From: Ruminococcaceae bacterium OttesenSCG-928-O06
GTDB taxonomy: Bacteria; Bacillota; Clostridia; Oscillospirales; Ruminococcaceae
NCBI GenBank assembly: GCA_030265505.1
Contig: JAJDGD010000001.1
Span: 1-64,000, forward strand
Length of the DNA: 64,000 nt
Direction of reading: 5' to 3'
The first letter of the stretch is position 1. The number at the start of each line of letters is the position of its first letter. The notes under the pieces are model-generated. The model did no database searches. It saw only the letters and a list, made by a program, of their open reading frames with translations, and was not told where the DNA came from. The position numbers and the translations under genes are program-made. This document shows, in pieces, positions 21,922 to 32,849 of this stretch.

Positions 21922-21932
21922 TACTCCCACTC
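21922..21932. repeat. attachment core, left copy
   Basis: TACTCCCACTC identical to 31324-31334. Confidence 0.8.
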
Positions 21933-22034
21933 GCAAACTTATAGATTGCTCTAAACATTTTTGTTTTGGTAATATGATTTCTATTTGCTCGATTTGATTT
22001 CAGTTATCCACTGTATATGGTATTTCTGAATTGC

Positions 22035-22067
22035 TGTTATCAAAATGTTATCAGGGTTTTGTTATCA
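22035..22067. repeat. Arm-type direct repeats TGTTATCA x3 (22035, 22046, 22060)
   Basis: Exact octamer three times; same octamer twice at the right end (31245, 31256). Confidence 0.6.
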
Positions 22068-22098
22068 ACTTAAGCTGGGTTGCTTAGAGATTATACCA

Positions 22099-24066
22099 TC
22101 ATATTTCCATCATGCCAATCTCTTTCAAGTAGTGGTATGTACCGTCATAATAGTTATGCGGCCTCGTGGGATCGGAATTGCTTCCATGCGGAATAAAAAT
22201 TATCATACCTTGCCTTGCTCGTGTTAATAAAACACGATAAGCATTTTTTAGATACAGCACGTTTTCCGGCTTATTGATATTCATCCATTTTGAACCTGTA
22301 AAGCTGTAGTGTTCAAAATGATCTCTGACAAACCGTAGATTCGCATCCCAGCAAACTATTGTCCAGTCAAGCTCAAGTCCTTGTATGTCAAACTCTGTAG
22401 CTGTATCTTCAAGAAAATACGATGAGCGAACATCGTTGGCGTCATTTAAGAACCAAGTTGTGGCATCGATTTTACTTTGTACCCACACCCCATAACCACG
22501 GAGCCGCTTTGCCCCTGAGCTTGCGGTGACGCCATAACGTTCAGTTCCTTTTGCCTGCGATTGAATCCACTCTTTAGCCTTGTCTAAGTTCCGGGTAATC
22601 AAGATGGGATAATCTTGATGCAGGTTACTATATAGAGTTTTGGCAGTATCACAATCTACGTCAAGGACAGCTTTCACGAATCCAGCCACGTTTTCGCTTC
22701 TAAACGAGCGCAACGAAACTGCCAAATGTAATGTTTCCACCACTGTATATTTCAAACCGCCTAATAGCGCATCCATAGAGAGACCACGTGTGTACTCCGT
22801 GTCCGTTATCTTATCCGAAACATAAACATCCCAATTTGGAAAGTCATTGCGAAGCGAATTAAACCATTCAATAAGCCCCGCTTCGCCTGTGTTTATCTCC
22901 TGTCCGCCTCCAATAAGGCAAATAATCACAGCCCAATCGCTGTGTCTATCCATAATGCTAATAAGAAATTCCGGTTCAGACATGAGAAAGTTAGGCTTGC
23001 CCTTTTTCCGTGCCATAAAATCTGATAGCATATCTTCGGTCCAGGCACGTTGAGCTTCGTCAAAAATTGCAACCTTTTCAGTTGGTGCTTCACTTGTCGA
23101 AATCGCATCATCTCGAAAATGATGTATTATTTGAATAAAAGCTTTTGCCTTGGTCTTTGCTTCTGATTTTTTTACGCCAAGACGCTCATGCTCATCGCGG
23201 GCAAGTGCTTCCTGTAAAACGTCAACAAGTGGTTGATTTCCAGATAAAAACACCGCATGCTCACTCTCATCGAACTTATGACGCTCATTTGCAATATTCA
23301 AGCCTGCTAAAGTCTTGCCGGCACCTGGTACACCTGTGATAAAACAAATGGATTTCTTATGCTCGTGTTTGCTTTTTTCAATTATTTCATTGATCGCGGC
23401 CGTGGTCTGATTCAAATTTACAGCGCTGGCATCATTTCTCGAAATATCAGTAACATTATGCCCGCGATATAATGCTTGCGCAGCCTCGATAATTGTCGGC
23501 GTCGGCGCATAGGGTGAACTCATCCATTCGGATGCATCTAAAGGGATAGCATTATTTATAGATAATATATATCTAATGGCATCGGCAATGTTATCCTGAT
23601 TGCATTTTATCGTTTCCCAAATGCCAGGCTTCATTTCATGATTGGCAAAAGGATGGACCAGCGCTCTTGTGGCAATTAGCATCGGGACAAGTAAAAGATT
23701 ATGGCTGGTTTTGTGAAAGTTTTTCAGGTCAAGTGCGTAGTCCGTCACCTGGTCCATGGCATGGCGTGCATACTCACGAGAACCAACCTTGAACTCAAGC
23801 AAGAACACAATTCCATCAACAATATACACACCGTCTATCCGATGACCGATGCGTGGGATGGTATACTCGAATACGATATGACCTCTGCCGATTTCAGCGA
23901 GAGCTCTTTTGAGTATGCGTATTTCCTCCAGCCAAGCGTTGCGTTGTAAGTCCTCAAGGGAAAATGGGTTATTACGAGTCAATTCGCCAAGGATTGTGTT
24001 TTCATGCTGTCGTAAAAAAAGTTGAATATCACTTGAATAGAATGCCCGTTGCATATAATGCCTCAT
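22099..24066 (-). CDS. DUF2075-family (Schlafen-like SF1) helicase/ATPase with N-terminal PD-(D/E)XK-like nuclease domain
   Basis: 655 aa; N-term RIDGVYIVDGIVFLLEFKVG (D...ExK); Walker A CFITGVPGAGKT, Walker B VAIFDEAQRAW, C-terminal NAYRVLLTRARQGMIIFIP SF1 motif VI-like. Confidence 0.82.
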   Translation of the reverse strand: MRHYMQRAFYSSDIQLFLRQHENTILGELTRNNPFSLEDLQRNAWLEEIRILKRALAEIGRGHIVFEYTIPRIGHRIDGVYIVDGIVFLLEFKVGSREYARHAMDQVTDYALDLKNFHKTSHNLLLVPMLIATRALVHPFANHEMKPGIWETIKCNQDNIADAIRYILSINNAIPLDASEWMSSPYAPTPTIIEAAQALYRGHNVTDISRNDASAVNLNQTTAAINEIIEKSKHEHKKSICFITGVPGAGKTLAGLNIANERHKFDESEHAVFLSGNQPLVDVLQEALARDEHERLGVKKSEAKTKAKAFIQIIHHFRDDAISTSEAPTEKVAIFDEAQRAWTEDMLSDFMARKKGKPNFLMSEPEFLISIMDRHSDWAVIICLIGGGQEINTGEAGLIEWFNSLRNDFPNWDVYVSDKITDTEYTRGLSMDALLGGLKYTVVETLHLAVSLRSFRSENVAGFVKAVLDVDCDTAKTLYSNLHQDYPILITRNLDKAKEWIQSQAKGTERYGVTASSGAKRLRGYGVWVQSKIDATTWFLNDANDVRSSYFLEDTATEFDIQGLELDWTIVCWDANLRFVRDHFEHYSFTGSKWMNINKPENVLYLKNAYRVLLTRARQGMIIFIPHGSNSDPTRPHNYYDGTYHYLKEIGMMEI

Positions 24067-24078
24067 CTCACCATTTAT

Positions 24079-25560
24079 TTAACTTAACAAGCCTTGAAGT
24101 GTTGTGATAAAAGCGCTAAAGTCCTCGTGAGAATAAATGTCGTCACATAGATATTTGATGAATTGATCTTCATTTATTCCGTTTGAAAATAAATTTGACT
24201 TTAGCACCTTATAAAGATTCTTCCCATTGGTATCGCGCCCCGGAGGAGTCGTCATTTCATAATCGGAAAGGATGTCTTTCAATGATCGCTGTGTAAAGTA
24301 TTTATCACCCAGAGTCTTAGTAAATATCTTATCCTTATCCTGTATTAGTTTTTTTAACAAATATTTTTCAATGCTCTTAACCGGAATAAATGTTTTAGGC
24401 AATGAGTGAAACTGCTGTTTTGCATTCACCTGGCTAATAACATCACCATCATAAATGCTAACTATTTTTTTGCCTACCCCTAATATCTTTCGGCTTGCTA
24501 TATCATGATGCAATTTAAGCATTTGTGACCAGCCCCCGCTTGGTAACACGCACCATAATTTGCTTTGACACAAATTATTTTCCCTAATAGTTTTTTCTAT
24601 CAACGCTCTCGCCAATTCATCTTCCGAGAGTATTAGAAAATCGAAACCGTTTGGTATGTAAAGATTTCGTACTGCATAATTTGGATAACATGGATTTACC
24701 ACTTCAACATCGCCATCGTTGTTTTCTATCATGAAAATGTTATCGGCCGGAATCCTTTGAATAATTTCAGACGAATGTGATGAAAAATATACTGTCATAT
24801 TGAAATTATCTTTTTCAATCAACCGCTCAAACATTGATATCATTCTATCTACAGCAGCAGGATGGAGAGCAAGCTCAGCCTCATCAATCAAAAAAATAAG
24901 TTTTTCGGTCTGAGGTAGCCGATTGCGTATCGTAAGATTGTTTATAAAGTCTATCAAAGAAATTAACATGCTTTCGCCACTGCTCATATTATATTGGCTA
25001 AAAAGGTGTCCATTTACTTCAAGAAAATATGGTATCCCCCTAAAGCCTTGCTCCCCTGAAACCGCCTTTGACTTGATTTTCATAAGCGACCGATAGTGGC
25101 GCCTATCTCCATGTAATATTTCGCTAAGAGTATCCTTTACAAAATTATCAGCAGGGCGAATGAAATCTTGGACATCTTTTTTCATGAACTCTTCCATTAG
25201 ATTGTAATCATAAAAACGCGATCCAATAAAAATACTGCCTTCAAAAAAACCACGGTAACGATTATCAACAGATACACGATCACGATAAAACTTTCCTGTG
25301 CTCCATTTCCCATTATCTAAAAACCAATGATCAATCACACCATCGACATTGATATCAATAGTCGAATCTGGTGTATAGTCGAAATCTCTTAACGTCCAAA
25401 TTGAAGAAGACTTTACGATTAGCGATATGAGCAACATTATGGTGCTTTTGCCACATCCATTTTCACCAACTATTGCATAAAGCCCCTTATCAAGAGGCAA
25501 CTGCATCTCACACGATTTTACATTTTTTATATCCTTTATCTTCAATGACAATTGACTCAT
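24079..25560 (-). CDS. ABC/RecF-type ATPase with C-terminal TOPRIM-like (OLD/DUF4435-like) domain
   Basis: 493 aa; Walker A VGENGCGKST, signature MSSGESMLISLIDF, Walker B LIFLIDEAELALHPAAVDRM, SSHSSEIIQRI; C-terminal FLILSEDELARALIEK...GGWSQMLK...KKIVSIYDGDV (E and DxD of TOPRIM). Confidence 0.82.
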   Translation of the reverse strand: MSQLSLKIKDIKNVKSCEMQLPLDKGLYAIVGENGCGKSTIMLLISLIVKSSSIWTLRDFDYTPDSTIDINVDGVIDHWFLDNGKWSTGKFYRDRVSVDNRYRGFFEGSIFIGSRFYDYNLMEEFMKKDVQDFIRPADNFVKDTLSEILHGDRRHYRSLMKIKSKAVSGEQGFRGIPYFLEVNGHLFSQYNMSSGESMLISLIDFINNLTIRNRLPQTEKLIFLIDEAELALHPAAVDRMISMFERLIEKDNFNMTVYFSSHSSEIIQRIPADNIFMIENNDGDVEVVNPCYPNYAVRNLYIPNGFDFLILSEDELARALIEKTIRENNLCQSKLWCVLPSGGWSQMLKLHHDIASRKILGVGKKIVSIYDGDVISQVNAKQQFHSLPKTFIPVKSIEKYLLKKLIQDKDKIFTKTLGDKYFTQRSLKDILSDYEMTTPPGRDTNGKNLYKVLKSNLFSNGINEDQFIKYLCDDIYSHEDFSAFITTLQGLLS

Positions 25561-25778
25561 CTTACTATCCTTTCTACGTCTTCATATAAAAAATCCATAT
25601 CTATTCCGTGATTTTTGCAGAAATCATTAAATACTGACTTTGCCATCTTATTCGGATGGGTTTTGCCGTTTTCCCATCGATTGATAGTGGCAAAACTTAT
25701 TTTCAAGGCATGCGCCATTTCTTCTTGACTCATACCCAATTGTTCGCGCACATGTTTCACGATTGAAGGAAAATCCAT
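25557..25778 (-). CDS. XRE-family HTH regulator, first gene of the cargo operon
   Basis: MDFPSIVKHVREQLGMSQEEMAHALKISFATINRWENGKTHPNKMA; gaggtga RBS; stop overlaps ATPase start (ATGA). Confidence 0.9.
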   Translation of the reverse strand: MDFPSIVKHVREQLGMSQEEMAHALKISFATINRWENGKTHPNKMAKSVFNDFCKNHGIDMDFLYEDVERIVR

Positions 25779-25904
25779 AAGCGTCACCTCGTTTTTTATT
25801 ATAACACATGCCATAGCATATGCATATCATTTTTCGACAATTATCGCTTATCATCGCAAAAACGAAGAGGGTGACTTGCCGATGGCAGCCGCCCTCTTTA
25901 TCAA

Positions 25905-27047
25905 TCATCTCACATTGTCATGCCTTGTAACCTGTTCCTGCTGATTCCTTCTACCGCTAATTAAATGGGACAGCCCATGCTTCTCAATGATATTTTTATA
26001 ATGGCCATTCTGCTGACGCAGTTCCCAATTTTCCTGCTTCAATTTCCCATTATCAAGCTGTCCTTTAATGGAGCGATATTCATCAAGCTGTTTTGTTAGA
26101 GAAGCAACCGTTTTCGTAAGCTCTGATAACTTCTGCTTCAATCCGGCGATGGTCTTTTCTGCCACCGCCAATGCCTTCTCCAACTTACTCTCACGTTTTA
26201 CCTGCACCACATATTTTTTCGCTGCTGTGACCAGTGTTTGATAATCCTCTTTTTCCAGCATGACCTTTGAGGAAAGCGGGACATTTTTCACATCAATCTG
26301 CTCCACTGCTCTTACATCCAACTGCTGATTCTGGATTTTTGCAATGGATTTCTCCAGAGCCTTGACCTCTTTCGCACGTTCTTCCTTTTTATAATTCATC
26401 ACACTCAAATGCTCATCATGGGTGCCAAGCTGCTCCCACTCAATATCATTGCGCTCCATGACCTGCGAAAGCTGTTCCTTCTCCGAACGTACCCACTGGC
26501 TCCACTCGGTATCACCACGAGCGCCGCCGGCGAATCCCTGTTCAGCAAGCGCCTGTTTGAGCGAAACACGGGTGTCCAGACCACGCTTGCTGCCTGTTGC
26601 AAATGGCACAAAATCTATGTGCAGATGCGGGGTGGCTTCATCCATGTGCAAGTGTGCCGAGAACACATGCATATTAGGATTGCGACGCTGGAAGTCTTTC
26701 ATATATTCATCCAGCACCTTAGCTGCAAGCTGACCATCTTCTGAAACCGCCGCCATATTATCCTTGTTTCCAACTTGCAGGATGACCTCATAGAAAAGTT
26801 TCTCCTGTTTTCCTGTGCGGATTTTCTCGTAATAATTATCAATCCGTCGGTCGGCTCGTTTCTGCTTGTCGTTGTAACGCTGGAGCGCATCATCAAAAAG
26901 ATTGTGGTATACTTGTTTTATCGGCTCGTTGCAGTAAGTAATATTCTGCGAGGAACGCTCAGCATCTATATTTGCAGCCTTGAACTTTCTGCTATTGTGG
27001 CTGACGGAACCTTTTCCAAGCATCACGCTGATGGTTCGCTTCATCAA
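25905..27047 (-). CDS. MobV-family relaxase (plasmid recombination/mobilization protein)
   Basis: N-term ...SVSHNSRKFKAANID..., HLHMDEATPHLHIDFVPFATG (HxDExxPHxH MobV motif), C-terminal coiled coil. Confidence 0.9.
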   Translation of the reverse strand: MMKRTISVMLGKGSVSHNSRKFKAANIDAERSSQNITYCNEPIKQVYHNLFDDALQRYNDKQKRADRRIDNYYEKIRTGKQEKLFYEVILQVGNKDNMAAVSEDGQLAAKVLDEYMKDFQRRNPNMHVFSAHLHMDEATPHLHIDFVPFATGSKRGLDTRVSLKQALAEQGFAGGARGDTEWSQWVRSEKEQLSQVMERNDIEWEQLGTHDEHLSVMNYKKEERAKEVKALEKSIAKIQNQQLDVRAVEQIDVKNVPLSSKVMLEKEDYQTLVTAAKKYVVQVKRESKLEKALAVAEKTIAGLKQKLSELTKTVASLTKQLDEYRSIKGQLDNGKLKQENWELRQQNGHYKNIIEKHGLSHLISGRRNQQEQVTRHDNVR

Positions 27048-27065
27048 TTCTCCTTCCGTTCGATT

Positions 27066-27106
27066 CCGGCGCGAGCCGGGGTTTTGTTACTTTTGTCAAA
27101 AGTAAC
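27066..27106. promoter_or_regulatory. Two adjacent hairpins upstream of the relaxase (possible oriT component)
   Basis: CCGGC-gcga-GCCGG (27066-27079) and GTTACTTTTG-t-CAAAAGTAAC (27086-27106) perfect inverted repeats. Confidence 0.4.
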
Positions 27107-27426
27107 GCAAAAGCACTTTTGACAGCCTACGGCCATCAAAAGATGCTGTTGCGCTCTCCGAGGGTGAAGGCCAGCTTACGCTGGCAGGGGCTTTGCCCCA
27201 TGTTCTGCGGAACATTCCCCAGTGCTCATCACCCTTTGAAAAGGGTGGCCGCACGGCTAACCTAAACTTTATCCACTCGCCGTTAGGCAGGAGGAATGGC
27301 GTTGCCATCCCTCCGCTGTCGAGTGTTATCCGTGAGCAAAACTCAATGGGTTCGGGTTGTATTGTCCCCGGACAATCTCCACCCGCAGGTATGCCCCATT
27401 GACTTTTCCTCCGATCCCGTGTCGGT

Positions 27427-27501
27427 CGTGACGATGGTGACGATGATTTTGACACCAACGTCACTACCGAAAAGACCGTCACGACCGTCACCATCGTCAC
27501 G
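27427..27501. repeat. 16-bp perfect inverted repeat with iteron-like 9-bp tandem units
   Basis: CGTGACGATGGTGACG (27427-27442) and CGTCACCATCGTCACG (27486-27501); right side reads ACCGTCACG ACCGTCACC ATCGTCACG. Confidence 0.6.
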
Positions 27502-28648
27502 CTTCGGAAAGCAGCGTTAGTGTGATGCGCCGCCCCGCATGGCTACGCTCATTCGCATAACGAACATTGTGCTCATCCATCAATCGCCCAGCATTGACAT
27601 TGAGCCGCATGGAGAGTGTGTTAGGTTTCATTTCCATTCTCAATAGCTCAACCAGCTCAGTAGCGGTTCCGCTCCATGTTGGCTGATCCTGTTGCACCAG
27701 TGCAGCCACAGCTTCAAGTAATGGGTCAGGCGGCGCTTGCCAAAGCTCAGTTTCCGCTTTTTCAAGCTGCCATATCAAGCGGTCAGCATCTCGCCGGAGA
27801 TGCAACCGCTGGTCTTGCTGGTCACGCCCGGATATATCCAGCGTAGCGGCATCACTGGTGCGCTTTTCTTTCTGGAGCAGGAACGCTCCATCGGCAGCAC
27901 CCAGCAAACCATTCGTGCCGGAAATCATATCAAACTTGTCCTCCGCCTGTTGCTTTCGCGTGTGGTGCACCAGCAAGAGGCAGATATGGTTTTTATCTGC
28001 GAACTGTTTGAGCTTGCCAACGATTTCATAATCATTTGCATAGCTGAATTTATCGCCGCCTGCCTCACGGACTTTTTGCAGGGTATCTATAATAATGAGC
28101 TTGGTGTCAGGATGCTCGTTTACGAACCGTTGAAGCTGTTCGTCCAATCCGCTGCCGAGCTGTTTCGCCCAAATCGTGAAATGCAAATTATCCGCACTAT
28201 CGGTGCCATACATACGAAAGAGGCGCTCCTGCAATCGCTTCTCGGTATCTTCCAACGCGAGATAAAGCACGGTACTCTTTTTCACTTCATAATTCCAGAG
28301 CTTAATTCCCATGCTGACATGATAGGCAAGCTGTGCCATGAAGAAGGACTTGCCAACCTTGGGCGCGCCCACGAACAGATATGTTCCAGAGTACAGCAGA
28401 CCGTCCACGATGGGCGGTCTGCTGTCGTACACATTCTCATAGAGGTCGCTCATAGAAAAAGTACGCATATACCCCGGCGAGTTATATTGCCGCATCTGCC
28501 GGGCTACTTCTTCAAAACGAAAGTTATCGTTGATTTCGGCGGAAGCGTCTGCTATACTTTGGTTAGTATTTATTGAAATCGGCTGTCCTTCATCTGCGCC
28601 AACAGATGGAATTAGGGCAGTCGCTTTTTCTTCATATGCCATCCACAT
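27497..28648 (-). CDS. RepA-like/RecA-fold AAA ATPase (AAA_25)
   Basis: TYLFVGAPKVGKSFFMAQLAYHVSMGIKLWNYEVKKSTVLYLALEDTEKRLQERL; LIIIDTLQKVRE; LLLVHHTRK. Confidence 0.88.
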   Translation of the reverse strand: MWMAYEEKATALIPSVGADEGQPISINTNQSIADASAEINDNFRFEEVARQMRQYNSPGYMRTFSMSDLYENVYDSRPPIVDGLLYSGTYLFVGAPKVGKSFFMAQLAYHVSMGIKLWNYEVKKSTVLYLALEDTEKRLQERLFRMYGTDSADNLHFTIWAKQLGSGLDEQLQRFVNEHPDTKLIIIDTLQKVREAGGDKFSYANDYEIVGKLKQFADKNHICLLLVHHTRKQQAEDKFDMISGTNGLLGAADGAFLLQKEKRTSDAATLDISGRDQQDQRLHLRRDADRLIWQLEKAETELWQAPPDPLLEAVAALVQQDQPTWSGTATELVELLRMEMKPNTLSMRLNVNAGRLMDEHNVRYANERSHAGRRITLTLLSEA

Positions 28649-28973
28649 CCTCCTTCATTCCATCCATAATGGCGGTAATCAGATGGATGGTGTCCAGCAA
28701 ATCCTCATCCACACCAGCACCAGCCTCGATGCGCTCCAACGCTGCCAGAACTGCCGCAAGCTCATTGCGGAGAGCTTTATATACCCTCGGATTGCCCTGC
28801 ACCACCACCTCGCGGTCTTGCAGCCGCCGGATGATATAATCCTGCTTGGTGAGCCCTGAGAGCCGCACGGCGGTTTCAAGCTGCTCATCCTCTTCGGGCG
28901 AAATACGAAACGCCACAGTCTTGTTGCGCCAGCGGCCTTGTCCATCGTATACTTTTAATGACATATCATTCAC
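28632..28973 (-). CDS. MobC/RHH-like mobilization accessory protein
   Basis: RWRNKTVAFRISPEEDEQLETAVRLSGLTKQDYIIRRLQDREVVVQGNPRVYKALRNELAAVLAALERI. Confidence 0.7.
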   Translation of the reverse strand: MNDMSLKVYDGQGRWRNKTVAFRISPEEDEQLETAVRLSGLTKQDYIIRRLQDREVVVQGNPRVYKALRNELAAVLAALERIEAGAGVDEDLLDTIHLITAIMDGMKEDVDGI

Positions 28974-30049
28974 CCCTTCGTTGTAGCCTGAAAATCAAGC
29001 TGGGTTGCCATTTCCTTTTGTTTCGAGGGGAAAAGATGAGCGTAGCGGTAAGTAATATCTATGCTCTCGTGACCAACACGGTCAGCGATTGCCAGAGCGG
29101 AGAAGCCCATATCAATCAAGAGGCTAACGTGGCTGTGACGAATATCATGGATTCTAATACGTTTGACCCCGGTCGCCTTGCTGCCCCTGTCCATTTCGTG
29201 GTGCAGATAGTGCTTGCTGATAGGGAAAATGCGGTCATTGGATTTTGCGCCATAGAACATCTTAATGTAGTCCTGCATCTCCTGAGAGAGGAAATCCGGC
29301 ATCAAGATTTTTCGATTGCTTTTCTTGGTCTTGGGCGTGGTAATGATGTCTTTGCCTTTGAGTCGCTGATACGATTTTGAAATGGAAAGTATACCTCTTT
29401 CAAAGTCAAAGTCAGCGGGCGTGAGGGCTAATAACTCCCCTACTCGAATGCCGCACCAATAGAGCACCTGAAAAGCATAGTAGGACATTGGCTTATCCAT
29501 CATGGCATCAGAGAATTGCTGATACTCGGCTTTCGTCCAGAACAACATCTCCTTCCGTTCCTCTACGCCCATGTTACCAGCCTTTGCTGCCGGATTGAGC
29601 CGGAGGTCATAATAGCGCACGGCGTGGTTGAATATTGCACTGAGCTGATTATGGATGGTCTTGAGATAGGTTGCAGAATGAAGGTTGCCTCTGGCATCCT
29701 TGATGGTGCGAATCTCATTCTGCCAGTCGATAACATCTTTTGCCGTAATATCGCACAGCGTGCGCTTTGCAAAGTAGGGTAAAATCTTTTTGTCGATGAT
29801 GCTTTCTTTGGTCAGCCAGGTGTTTTCTTTCAAGCGAGGTTTTATGTCCTTTTTATATAGCTCTACAAAGCTGTCAAAGGGCATTTCCACGTCTGCCTGC
29901 TTCTGCTGCAAAAACTCTCGCTCCCAATCAAGGGCATCCTTCCGGGTTGCAAAGCCACGCTTGCACTTCTGCTTGCGTTCTCCCTTCCAGTCGGTATATC
30001 GCGCCATGACATACCATGTTTTTGTATCTTCGTTTTTGAAAATTGGCAT
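28970..30049 (-). CDS. int: Tyrosine-type site-specific integrase
   Basis: MPIFKNEDTKTWYVMARYTDWKGERKQKCKRGFATRKDALDWEREF; catalytic CGIRVGELLAL, IRIHDIRHSHVSLLIDMG, VGHESIDITYRYAHL. Confidence 0.95.
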   Translation of the reverse strand: MPIFKNEDTKTWYVMARYTDWKGERKQKCKRGFATRKDALDWEREFLQQKQADVEMPFDSFVELYKKDIKPRLKENTWLTKESIIDKKILPYFAKRTLCDITAKDVIDWQNEIRTIKDARGNLHSATYLKTIHNQLSAIFNHAVRYYDLRLNPAAKAGNMGVEERKEMLFWTKAEYQQFSDAMMDKPMSYYAFQVLYWCGIRVGELLALTPADFDFERGILSISKSYQRLKGKDIITTPKTKKSNRKILMPDFLSQEMQDYIKMFYGAKSNDRIFPISKHYLHHEMDRGSKATGVKRIRIHDIRHSHVSLLIDMGFSALAIADRVGHESIDITYRYAHLFPSKQKEMATQLDFQATTKG

Positions 30050-30062
30050 TTTTCGTACCTCC

Positions 30063-30272
30063 TCAGTTTTTTGTGGGTGAGCCGTAGAATTTCTCATAAA
30101 AGAACCTGCGGTCAATGCGTCCGGCAATGACGATGCAGCCCTTTTGCTTGAGTTCTTCATTCAACTTGCGGATGAGCTTATAGGCGTATGGCTCCGATAC
30201 ATCCAGAGCCTCCGCAACCTCCTTTACCCGCATAAACAGTTTTTCCGCCAAATTATTTCCTCCTATTTTCAT
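30063..30272 (-). CDS. Excisionase-like small HTH protein
   Basis: LFMRVKEVAEALDVSEPYAYKLIRKLNEELKQKGCIVIAGRIDRRFFYEKFYG, immediately upstream of int. Confidence 0.75.
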   Translation of the reverse strand: MKIGGNNLAEKLFMRVKEVAEALDVSEPYAYKLIRKLNEELKQKGCIVIAGRIDRRFFYEKFYGSPTKN

Positions 30273-30412
30273 TTGTCTTAGACATGCCGCAGATGCCACC
30301 CTGCGTCCTGTGGCTGCCCACGCCACAGGTTTCGTGTCGGGGTACTTTCTGAATCGCCTCCCGATTCGCCCGGGCGATACACACCATTACCGTGATGTGC
30401 GACGGCTATTCA

Positions 30413-30543
30413 CTAAGCGTATTTGCTTAGCTTGTGATTTCATTATACTAAGCATTATTGTTAAAGTCAAGTGGTTTGCGAAAAAATGTTTAACTTTTTT
30501 GTTAAAGTTTTTATTGACTATCCCTAAGCATATATGCTATACT
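30413..30543. promoter_or_regulatory. Divergent promoter region with CTAAGC-N6-GCTTAG-type operators
   Basis: Operators 30413-30430, 30448-30464, 30524-30541; plus promoter TTGACT (30514) N18 TATACT (30538); minus promoter TTGACT (30470-30465) N17 TATAAT (30447-30442). Confidence 0.65.
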
Positions 30544-30576
30544 CATTTCAACAGAGTACAGACAGGAGATGGCAAT

Positions 30577-31098
30577 ATGGCGATTGGTGAAAGAATCCAC
30601 TTTCTGCGCAATTTGCGTGGGATGACACAAAAATATCTTGGTCAGGCGGTCGGCTTTCCTGAAAAGACCGCCGATGTACGCATGGCGCAATACGAATCCG
30701 GTACACGAACACCGAAAGCTGATTTGACCAAAACCCTTGCTAACATCTTGGAGGTATCTCCTCATGCGCTGGACGTGCCGGACATCGACAGCGATATTGG
30801 GCTGATGCACACCTTATTCACCCTTGAAGATTTGCGCGGCCTTCGTGTGACAGAGGTCGATGGCGAGGTCTGCATTAAGCTGGATCAGAGCACTGGCAAA
30901 ACCTATGACGAGATGTCCCAGATGCTTTTTGCATGGCTTGAGCAGGCTAAGAAGCTTGAAGCCGGGGAAATCACCAAAGAGGAATATGACCAATGGCGGT
31001 ACAGGTATCCCGAATTTGACACCACGCAGCGGTGGGTCAAGGTTCCATCCCAGGAACTGAGTGATTACCTCGTAGAAGCCCTCAAAGACAAGAAATAA
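30577..31098 (+). CDS. CI-like XRE-family transcriptional regulator
   Basis: MAIGERIHFLRNLRGMTQKYLGQAVGFPEKTADVRMAQYESGTRTPKADLTKTLANILEVS. Confidence 0.9.
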   Translation: MAIGERIHFLRNLRGMTQKYLGQAVGFPEKTADVRMAQYESGTRTPKADLTKTLANILEVSPHALDVPDIDSDIGLMHTLFTLEDLRGLRVTEVDGEVCIKLDQSTGKTYDEMSQMLFAWLEQAKKLEAGEITKEEYDQWRYRYPEFDTTQRWVKVPSQELSDYLVEALKDKK

Positions 31099-31116
31099 GC
31101 ACCTTTTCGGAACATA

Positions 31117-31156
31117 AAAAACGGTCTTGCTGACAGCAAATCAGCAAGACCGTTTT
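31117..31156. terminator. Terminator after CI-like regulator
   Basis: AAAACGGTCTTGCTGA-cagcaaa-TCAGCAAGACCGTTTT. Confidence 0.8.
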
Positions 31157-31244
31157 CAATGGATAGGGCAGTGGCAACACAGCGGCAACAGGTAAAACAC
31201 ACCTGCAAACCACCTGCGGCACAGAATAAGTGCCCAAATGCTCC

Positions 31245-31263
31245 TGTTATCAAACTGTTATCA
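31245..31263. repeat. Arm-type direct repeats TGTTATCA x2 (31245, 31256)
   Basis: Same octamer, same orientation and same 11-bp period as the left-end repeats. Confidence 0.6.
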
Positions 31264-31269
31264 AAAGGC

Positions 31270-31316
31270 AAAAAGAAATCCCGGAAAGCCGCTTAAATAG
31301 CGAGTTTCCGGGATAG
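31270..31316 (-). terminator. Terminator for guaA located inside the element end
   Basis: Minus strand ATCCCGGAAA...TTTCCGGGAT followed by TTCTTTTTGCC. Confidence 0.65.
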
Positions 31317-31322
31317 TTTTAT

Positions 31323-32849
31323 CTACTCCCACTCTATCGTGCTGGGCGGTTTCGTCGTACAATCGTATAAAATTCGGTTCACGCCGGACACCTCGTTCAC
31401 AATACGGGTAGAGATACGCTCCAGCACCTCGTACGGGATGCGCGCCCAGTCGCTTGTCATGGCATCGGTGCTGGTAACCGCGCGGATGCCCACCGCATGG
31501 GCATAGGTGCGCTCGTCGCCCATCACGCCCACGCTGCGCAGGTTGGGCAGCACGGTGAAGTACTGCCAAATTTCCTCGTCCAGGTGTGCGGCGGCAATCT
31601 CCTGGCGCAAAATGGCGTCGCTCTCGCGCAGGATGAAAAGCTTGTCCTCCCGCACTTCGCCAAGGCAGCGCACCGCAAGCCCCGGGCCCGGGAAAGGCTG
31701 CCTTTGCACAATAAACCGCGGAATACCAAGCTGCGTGCCCACCCGGCGCACCTCGTCCTTAAACAGCAGACGCAGCGGCTCCAAAAGCGTGAAACCCAGC
31801 TTTTCGGGCAGGCCGCCCACGTTGTGGTGGCTTTTTATCAACGCGGCATCCCCTACCCCGCTCTCAATAATGTCCGGGTAAATAGTGCCCTGCAGCAAAA
31901 AGTCCATCTTGCCCAGCTTTTGGGCCTCCTCGGTGAATACCTCTATAAACTCCGCGCCGATGATCTTGCGCTTCTGCTCGGGGTCTGTAACGCCGGCAAG
32001 CTTTGCCAAAAAGCGTTCTCCCGCATTCACGCGTATCACGTTCAGCTTGAATTCTTTGGCCAGGGTATCCATCACCTCGTCGCCTTCGTTTTTGCGCATC
32101 AGGCCGTGGTCTACAAACACGCAGGTCAGGCGCTCGCCAATGGCCTTGTGGGTAAGCACGGCACAAACGGTGCTGTCCACCCCGCCGGAAAGGGCACACA
32201 GCACCCGCCCTTCGCCCACAGTTTTTTGGATGTCCTCGATGGTGGCCTGCACAAAGCTGGCGGTAGTCCAGTCTCCGGTGCAGCCGCACACCTCGTACAA
32301 AAATACGCGCAAAAAGGCCCGGCCAAAGGGCGTGTGCTCCACCTCGGGGTGGAACTGCACGGCATACAGCTTGCGCGCCGCATCCTCTATGGCCGCATAG
32401 GGGCACAGCTCGCTGGTGGCGGTGGTGGCAAAGCCCGCCGGCGGCTGCACAATCTGGTCGTTGTGGCTCATCCAGGAAACGTCGCTGTCCACCACCTGCT
32501 GGATGAGCCCGCCCGTGGCCTGTATCGGGATTTTGCCAAACTCCTGGCGCTGTTGCCGCTCCACCTTGCCGCCCAGGGCCTGGGCCATCAGCTGGGCGCC
32601 GTAGCAAATGCCCAAAATGGGGATGCCCATGTCATACACGGCCGCATCAATGTCGGGCGCGCTTGGCTGGTACACGCTGGCCGGCCCCCCGGTGAAGATG
32701 ATGCCCACAGGCTTTTTCTCGCGAATGGCCTTTATGGCGTCCTTGTAGGGCACCACCTCGCAGTATACGTTGTTTTCCCGCACCCGGCGGGCAATCAGCT
32801 GGTTATATTGGCCGCCAAAATCCACAATGATGATGGTTTGATGTGACAA
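31323..32849 (-). CDS. guaA: GMP synthase (glutamine-hydrolysing)
   Basis: [49 protein letters not shown], ends [13 protein letters not shown]. Confidence 0.97.
31324..31334. repeat. attachment core, right copy (overlaps guaA stop codon)
   Basis: TACTCCCACTC identical to 21922-21932. Confidence 0.8.

What the first reader, a model, noticed from the sequence alone, without database searches (positions are those of the whole stretch)
22099..25778. Candidate undescribed defence operon: XRE regulator + ATPase-TOPRIM + PD-(D/E)XK-DUF2075 helicase
Seen: three tightly packed minus-strand genes (ATGA overlap, then a 12-nt gap) as cargo between the left att site and the mobilization module. Gene 2 has an ABC/RecF ATPase (GENGCGKST, SSGES, LIDEAELALHP) and a C-terminal E...DGD pattern like TOPRIM of OLD/DUF4435 proteins. 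Gene 3 has a D...ExK nuclease-like N-terminus plus a DUF2075/SF1 helicase. Established: ATPase-TOPRIM nucleases act in Gabija (GajA with UvrD-like GajB) and PARIS (AriA/AriB). Inference: pairing with a nuclease-DUF2075 helicase under an XRE regulator suggests a distinct Gabija/PARIS-like system.
Basis: partly seen in the sequence, partly recalled or inferred. Interest (0 to 1): 0.78.

Follow-up and report, generated by a model that had tools for sequence, protein, structure and literature searches.

The report
Two stand-alone defence genes as cargo
A small mobile element in a gut-type bacterium carries two probable anti-phage genes side by side; each belongs to an already catalogued family that lives alone in all the other genomes and phages examined, so this looks like ordinary defence cargo rather than a new combined defence system.

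Summary
Three tightly packed minus-strand genes (an XRE regulator; an ATPase-TOPRIM protein; a PD-(D/E)XK-plus-SF1 helicase protein) are cargo of a ~9.4 kb integrative mobilizable element at the 3' end of guaA. The interpretation as a distinct Gabija/PARIS-like system is not supported. Gene 3 matches an existing PADLOC candidate, PDC-S41, over its full length (956 bits). Gene 2 is an OLD-like ATPase-TOPRIM protein, nearest to the retron I-B effector model (133 bits) and then HEC-04/IbfA, but no reverse transcriptase is present. In 90 other gene-3 loci from many phyla, none has a gene-2 relative in the flanks held (up to 7 kb each side). In 11 loci with gene-2 relatives (prophages, a Pf phage, plasmids, chromosomes) none has gene 3. 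Across two genome sets (391 and 150) only the window's genome has both. Related elements carry other cargo next to the same mobilization module: a type I methylase, an ABC-F protein, a tetracycline-resistance protein. Best reading: two independent single-gene defence modules stacked in a cargo slot. Gene 3 is a nuclease-helicase whose helicase half resembles human SLFN11/14; gene 2 is a solo OLD-like abortive nuclease. Both functions are inferred, not shown.

The parts
21922..31334 (.). Integrative mobilizable element (about 9.4 kb) inserted at the 3' end of guaA
   Evidence: 11-bp direct repeat TACTCCCACTC at 21922-21932 and 31324-31334; reverse complement GAGTGGGAGTA contains the GAGTGGGA core reported for guaA-specific elements (GIsul2, PMC9376610); element genes from Pfam
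21922..21932 (.). attL core repeat
22099..24066 (-). Gene 3: PD-(D/E)XK nuclease + Schlafen-group-3 (DUF2075) SF1 helicase, 655 aa as called; likely real start 24054 (651 aa). PDC-S41 family
   Evidence: Pfam SLFN-g3_helicase 4e-82; PADLOC PDC-S41 1.8e-288 over residues 5-654; AF2 model and Foldseek
24079..25560 (-). Gene 2: ABC/RecF-type ATPase + TOPRIM (OLD-like), 493 aa
   Evidence: Pfam AAA_15 9e-12; PADLOC ATPase-Toprim_I-B 3.6e-39 over residues 3-489; PDB/Foldseek matches to retron PtuA, GajA, TsOLD
25557..25778 (-). Gene 1: XRE/HTH_3 regulator, 73 aa
   Evidence: Pfam HTH_3 3e-12; ATGA overlap with gene 2
25905..27047 (-). MobV-type relaxase
   Evidence: Pfam Mob_Pre 6e-18; NCBIfam MobV 2e-12, below its cut-off
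27497..28648 (-). RepA-like AAA_25 ATPase of the element backbone
28632..28973 (-). NikA-like mobilization protein
28970..30160 (-). Tyrosine integrase
   Evidence: Phage_integrase 4e-19
30063..30326 (-). HTH_17 excisionase-like protein
   Evidence: weak
30310..31098 (+). XRE-type element regulator (ORF probably starts downstream of the first in-frame start)
   Evidence: weak; homologues in related elements
31324..31334 (.). attR core repeat at the 3' end of guaA (31323-32849, minus strand)

Best explanation
The locus is the cargo slot of a guaA-specific integrative mobilizable element that currently holds two independent single-gene anti-phage modules behind an XRE regulator. Gene 3 (PDC-S41 family) is a one-protein nuclease-helicase. 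Its Schlafen-group-3 SF1 motor would engage and move on invading or replicating DNA, and its N-terminal PD-(D/E)XK domain would cut it (domains shown; substrate and action inferred). Gene 2 is a stand-alone OLD-like ATPase-TOPRIM nuclease that would lie inactive until an infection cue alters its nucleotide- or DNA-bound state, then cut nucleic acid and abort the infection, as reported or proposed for P2 Old, IbfA/HEC-04 and retron OLD effectors (architecture shown; trigger and substrate inferred). The XRE protein would keep the operon low until needed (inferred). The tight spacing gives co-expression; there is no evidence for a joint complex.
For: Gene 3: PDC-S41 full length, 956 bits. Relatives found widely, with 471 confirmed candidates and 80 loci kept, including an archaeon and many bacterial phyla. 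Its same-strand neighbours include type II RM, Vsr, DRT reverse transcriptases, SoFic and other PDC genes. 0 of 90 gene-3 loci carry a gene-2 relative. Gene 2: relatives stand alone in prophage and phage contexts (inside a tail-gene module in L137; Pf phage PfAC13, L023; L114, L138, L139) and on plasmids (L012-L014), with no gene 3 in any of 11 loci. All relatives score best to the same PADLOC ATPase-Toprim model. Genome co-occurrence: only the window's genome has both genes. Cargo swap: related backbones at guaA carry a type I methylase (L132), Lsa-family ABC-F (L133) or Tet(M/W)-family protein (L134) beside the relaxase. Solo OLD-like proteins with anti-phage activity are published: IbfA and HEC-04 (PMC12111858), YbjD (PMC13261556).
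Against: Genes 1-3 are packed as one operon, as partners of a system would be. Collection searches are pattern-based and capped, so a rare clade that keeps the pair could have been missed. Many contigs are short: only 47 of the 90 gene-3 loci have more than 5 kb on both sides. PDC-S41 has no experimental proof of defence that I could find. The gene 2 model is of moderate quality (pLDDT 66.5).
Confidence: 0.78

Rival explanations
1. The three genes form one system: gene 2 senses infection and makes nicks or ends, gene 3 processes the DNA from them, analogous to GajA-GajB, with the XRE protein as repressor.
For: Operon packing with ATGA overlap and 12-24 nt gap; GajA is among the structural matches of gene 2; a helicase follows an ATPase-TOPRIM gene as in Gabija.
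Against: Pair absent from all other loci and genomes examined. Gene 3 is not UvrD/GajB-like and is common alone. Gene 2 matches GajA models only over its ATPase core (43 bits).
Confidence: 0.12
2. Gene 1 and gene 3 are an older unit (XRE regulator + PDC-S41), and gene 2 was inserted between them as an extra module. This is a variant of the best explanation (two modules), differing only in which gene the regulator came with.
For: 11-12 of 90 gene-3 loci, plus L148 in the same order, have an XRE-type HTH gene directly upstream on the same strand; gene-2 relatives usually lack one.
Against: Gene 1 is of another XRE subfamily: the profile of gene-3-linked HTHs does not find it. Its nearest match, L135 (43% over 63 aa), precedes an unrelated gene, so it may be a generic cargo regulator.
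Confidence: 0.3
3. Gene 2 is a retron effector that has lost, or works in trans with, its reverse transcriptase.
For: Best PADLOC model is the retron type I-B ATPase-TOPRIM effector (3.6e-39); solved relatives are retron Ec83/Ec78 PtuA.
Against: No RT-like motif in the element's ORFs, nor in ORFs over 250 aa around 10 gene-2 relative loci. The whole family scores alike without an RT, so the model match reflects kinship rather than a lost partner.
Confidence: 0.06

Closest known systems
PDC-S41 (PADLOC phage-defence candidate, single gene)
   Same: Gene 3 matches the model over 652 of 657 positions, 1.8e-288
   Different: No difference seen; here it shares an operon with gene 2
Schlafen group 3 helicase domain (Pfam PF09848, formerly DUF2075; human SLFN11/SLFN14)
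   Same: Helicase half of gene 3: Pfam 4e-82; top Foldseek hits are SLFN11 and SLFN14
   Different: Sequence identity 8-14%, low TM-scores (about 0.3); the N-terminal nuclease is PD-(D/E)XK, not the Schlafen RNase core
OLD family, Class 1 (P2 Old, T. scotoductus OLD, YbjD)
   Same: ATPase-TOPRIM order, conserved acidic residues, relatives found as single genes including in prophages
   Different: Only weak sequence similarity to the Old model (60.6 bits); here in an operon
HEC-04 / IbfA
   Same: Single-gene ABC ATPase-TOPRIM; PADLOC HEC-04 4.4e-20; plasmid-borne and anti-phage in enterobacteria (PMC12111858)
   Different: Second-best model; IbfA sequence itself not compared (record not held)
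Retron type I-B effector (ATPase-TOPRIM)
   Same: Best model for gene 2, nearly full length
   Different: No reverse transcriptase found; no retron RNA model searched
Gabija (GajA/GajB)
   Same: ATPase-TOPRIM protein followed by an SF1 helicase gene
   Different: Neither protein belongs to the Gabija families; helicase is Schlafen-type with its own nuclease

Membership tests
PDC-S41 | Full-length match to the PDC-S41 profile | tested here: met
   956 bits, residues 5-654 of gene 3 to positions 1-652/657
PDC-S41 | Works as a single gene (conserved without a fixed partner) | tested here: met
   No neighbour shared by more than about 18% of 90 loci; most frequent are XRE HTH and NUDIX genes
PDC-S41 | Demonstrated anti-phage activity | not testable with these tools
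   No paper found in the held library
OLD family (Class 1) | N-terminal ABC ATPase with Walker A, signature, Walker B and H-loop | tested here: met
   Invariant in six relatives; AAA_15
OLD family (Class 1) | C-terminal TOPRIM with E and DxD residues | tested here: met
   E313, D371, D373 invariant; full-length ATPase-Toprim model; TsOLD and GajA among structural matches, on a moderate model
OLD family (Class 1) | Occurs as an isolated gene | tested here: inconclusive
   Relatives are isolated; in the window it is in a three-gene operon
Gabija | GajA family membership of the ATPase-TOPRIM protein | tested here: not met
   GajA models at most 43 bits, ATPase core only; other families score higher
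Gabija | UvrD/PcrA-like GajB helicase partner | tested here: not met
   Gene 3 is a PDC-S41/Schlafen-group-3 helicase; no GajB model hit
PARIS | AriA ATPase with AriB DUF4435 nuclease (separate or fused) | tested here: not met
   AriA/AriAB models hit only the ATPase part (47 and 36 bits); no DUF4435 match in Pfam
Retron type I-B | Effector profile match | tested here: met
   133 bits, residues 3-489
Retron type I-B | Adjacent reverse transcriptase and msr-msd RNA | tested here: not met
   No RT-type [YF]xDD motif in element ORFs and no RT family hit among the element proteins scanned; RNA models were not searched
HEC-04/IbfA | Best match to the HEC-04 profile | tested here: not met
   Significant (4.4e-20) but second to ATPase-Toprim_I-B
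guaA-specific integrative mobilizable element | Tyrosine integrase, relaxase, insertion at guaA 3' end with direct-repeat core | tested here: met
   Integrase and relaxase, repeat, core as in PMC9376610

The most novel reading that the evidence does not exclude
An OLD-like ATPase-TOPRIM nuclease and a Schlafen-helicase nuclease cooperate as a two-effector system under one XRE repressor: a rare or recent analogue of Gabija assembled from two otherwise solo proteins.
Probability: 0.1. Interest if true: 0.55.

Novelty: new member of a known kind. Interest (0 to 1): 0.3.

Why it matters
It shows how a guaA-specific mobilizable element swaps defence and resistance cargo in one slot, and how a nearby helicase can make two unrelated solo defence genes look like a Gabija-type system. 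The more interesting part is the PDC-S41 family itself. It is a widespread, apparently untested nuclease-helicase whose motor is related to the helicase half of human SLFN11/13/14 proteins, found in bacteria and at least one archaeal assembly, so testing it would bear on where the Schlafen helicase came from.

Tried and rejected
Single-protein scans of genome and viral collections found nothing; alignments were needed. PDB sequence search with gene 3 gave only calcium-activated potassium channel chains at E 0.002-0.008, not credible; the fold search replaced it. Papers naming DUF2075 with defence and phage, or PDC-S41: none in the library. IbfA could not be fetched from the record named in its paper; 30 kb of R64 read instead held no annotated ibfA, so gene 2 was compared with the HEC-04 profile only. 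A retron was considered because of the I-B effector match and rejected for lack of an RT. Gabija and PARIS were rejected on profile and partner tests. Promoter and terminator scans gave no more than chance (16 found against 12.2 +/- 3.1; 3 against 2.8). No convincing operator palindrome before gene 1.

Full report
Observation. Gene 1 (25557-25778, 73 aa) overlaps gene 2 (24079-25560, 493 aa) by ATGA, and gene 3 (22099-24066, 655 aa) follows after 12 nt. Relatives of gene 3 begin at its fifth codon and a purine-rich stretch sits just before that codon, so 24054 is the likelier start. G+C of genes 1-3 is 36-43%, against 58% for the window and 60% for guaA, as expected for imported DNA.

The element. 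An 11-bp repeat TACTCCCACTC flanks 21922-31334, and the right copy lies at the 3' end of guaA. Its complement contains GAGTGGGA, the core reported for the guaA-specific island GIsul2 (PMC9376610). Inside are a tyrosine integrase, a NikA-like protein, an AAA_25 RepA-like ATPase and a Mob_Pre/MobV relaxase. DNA of this backbone matches 52 of 150 related genomes, counting the window's own and including weak matches. In the same genus (L132) a backbone 74% identical over 4.7 kb sits next to guaA and is followed by a type I methylase. In two other genomes the relaxase is followed by an Lsa-family ABC-F protein (L133) or a TetM/TetW-family protein (L134). The place of genes 1-3 is therefore a cargo slot.

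Gene 3. Pfam: SLFN-g3_helicase, 4e-82. PADLOC: PDC-S41, 1.8e-288, essentially full length; the next matches are marginal. In 44 sequences the nuclease residues E67, D78, E91-x-K93 and Q106 and the helicase motifs are invariant. The AlphaFold2 model (pLDDT 86.4) has the PD-(D/E)XK core followed by the helicase. Its best PDB matches are human SLFN11 and SLFN14, then RecD, Upf1 and Dna2, with low TM-scores because the domains are arranged differently. An alignment scan of 85,000 genomes gave 471 confirmed relatives, 80 kept, from Clostridia, Bacteroidota, Proteobacteria, Planctomycetota, Patescibacteria and others, and one thaumarchaeote assembly. The nearest, 77% identical, is on a Verrucomicrobia-labelled MAG contig.

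Neighbours of gene 3. Of 90 loci examined (two of them, L018 and L030, are the same contig), none has a gene-2 relative; 47 have more than 5 kb on both sides. Recurring neighbours are an XRE-type HTH gene directly upstream (11-12 loci) and a NUDIX gene (9 loci). Single or few loci have type II methylase plus Vsr, reverse transcriptases of the DRT type, SoFic and other candidate genes. These are defence-type neighbourhoods without a fixed partner.

Gene 2. Pfam: AAA_15. PADLOC: ATPase-Toprim_I-B 133 bits over residues 3-489, then HEC-04 70 bits, then Mad3, Old and PtuA, mostly over the ATPase core. The profile finds retron Ec83/Ec78 PtuA, TsOLD and AriA in the PDB. The model is moderate (pLDDT 66.5), but its fold matches are retron PtuA, GajA and TsOLD. 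E313, D371 and D373 are invariant, consistent with an active TOPRIM. Pfam has no DUF4435 hit. Relatives: 52% identical in a phage contig between tail genes (L137; that copy has an in-frame TAG), 37-41% in other phage contigs and in the Pf phage PfAC13, and 27-34% on Escherichia and Acetobacter plasmids. None of 11 such loci has gene 3, and no RT motif was seen in ORFs over 250 aa at the 10 scanned.

Co-occurrence. In 391 genomes of the class, gene 2 relatives are in G246 and gene 3 relatives in six others. In 150 relatives, gene 2 is in G898 and gene 3 in G869, G891 and G905. Only the window's genome has both.

Interpretation. The system reading fails its own test: gene 3 is an existing candidate model and the pair is not conserved. 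The best explanation is two solo modules in one cargo operon. Published solo ATPase-TOPRIM proteins act alone: IbfA and its homologue HEC-04 (PMC12111858) and YbjD (PMC13261556); the OLD review defines Class 1 as single genes (PMC10568477). Gene 2's action as an abortive nuclease and gene 3's action as a DNA-targeting nuclease-helicase are inferences from architecture. PDC-S41 has no test that I could find. The XRE gene may be a generic cargo regulator: its nearest match in the material, 43% over 63 aa, lies in L135 downstream of a related backbone, also with an ATGA overlap to an unrelated gene.

Verdict. Real, well-formed defence-type cargo; new member of known kinds; interest 0.3, mostly for the untested PDC-S41/Schlafen-helicase family.

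Noticed in passing
L017:6022-6411, L022:2660-3058, L028:8953-9336 (also L026, L033, L063, L072, L075, L079): A NUDIX (MutT-like) gene sits within two or so genes of the PDC-S41 gene in 9 loci, with 4-nt overlaps in L017 and L028; L019 has a MazG-like pyrophosphohydrolase there. A nucleotide-cleaning partner of this helicase may be worth a look.
   Followed up: partly
L031, L038, L041 around the helicase gene: PDC-S41 genes lie beside a C5 DNA methylase and Vsr endonuclease, i.e. inside type II restriction-modification loci.
   Followed up: no
L137:3120-4616: The closest gene-2 relative (52%) lies in a phage contig between tail genes and has an in-frame TAG at codon 45; pseudogene, error or recoded phage not resolved.
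   Followed up: partly
L134:4931-6850 and L133:6869-8407: Related guaA-linked mobilizable elements carry a Tet(M/W)-family ribosomal protection protein and an Lsa-family ABC-F protein in the same slot next to the relaxase.
   Followed up: yes
L023:8452-9963: Filamentous Pseudomonas phage PfAC13 carries a gene-2 relative (annotated 'putative AbiEii toxin') next to its repressor, as likely phage-phage defence cargo.
   Followed up: partly
window:13937-18976: MATE-type transporter, TetR- and GntR-type regulators and ABC transporter genes lie left of the element; ordinary chromosomal genes.
   Followed up: no
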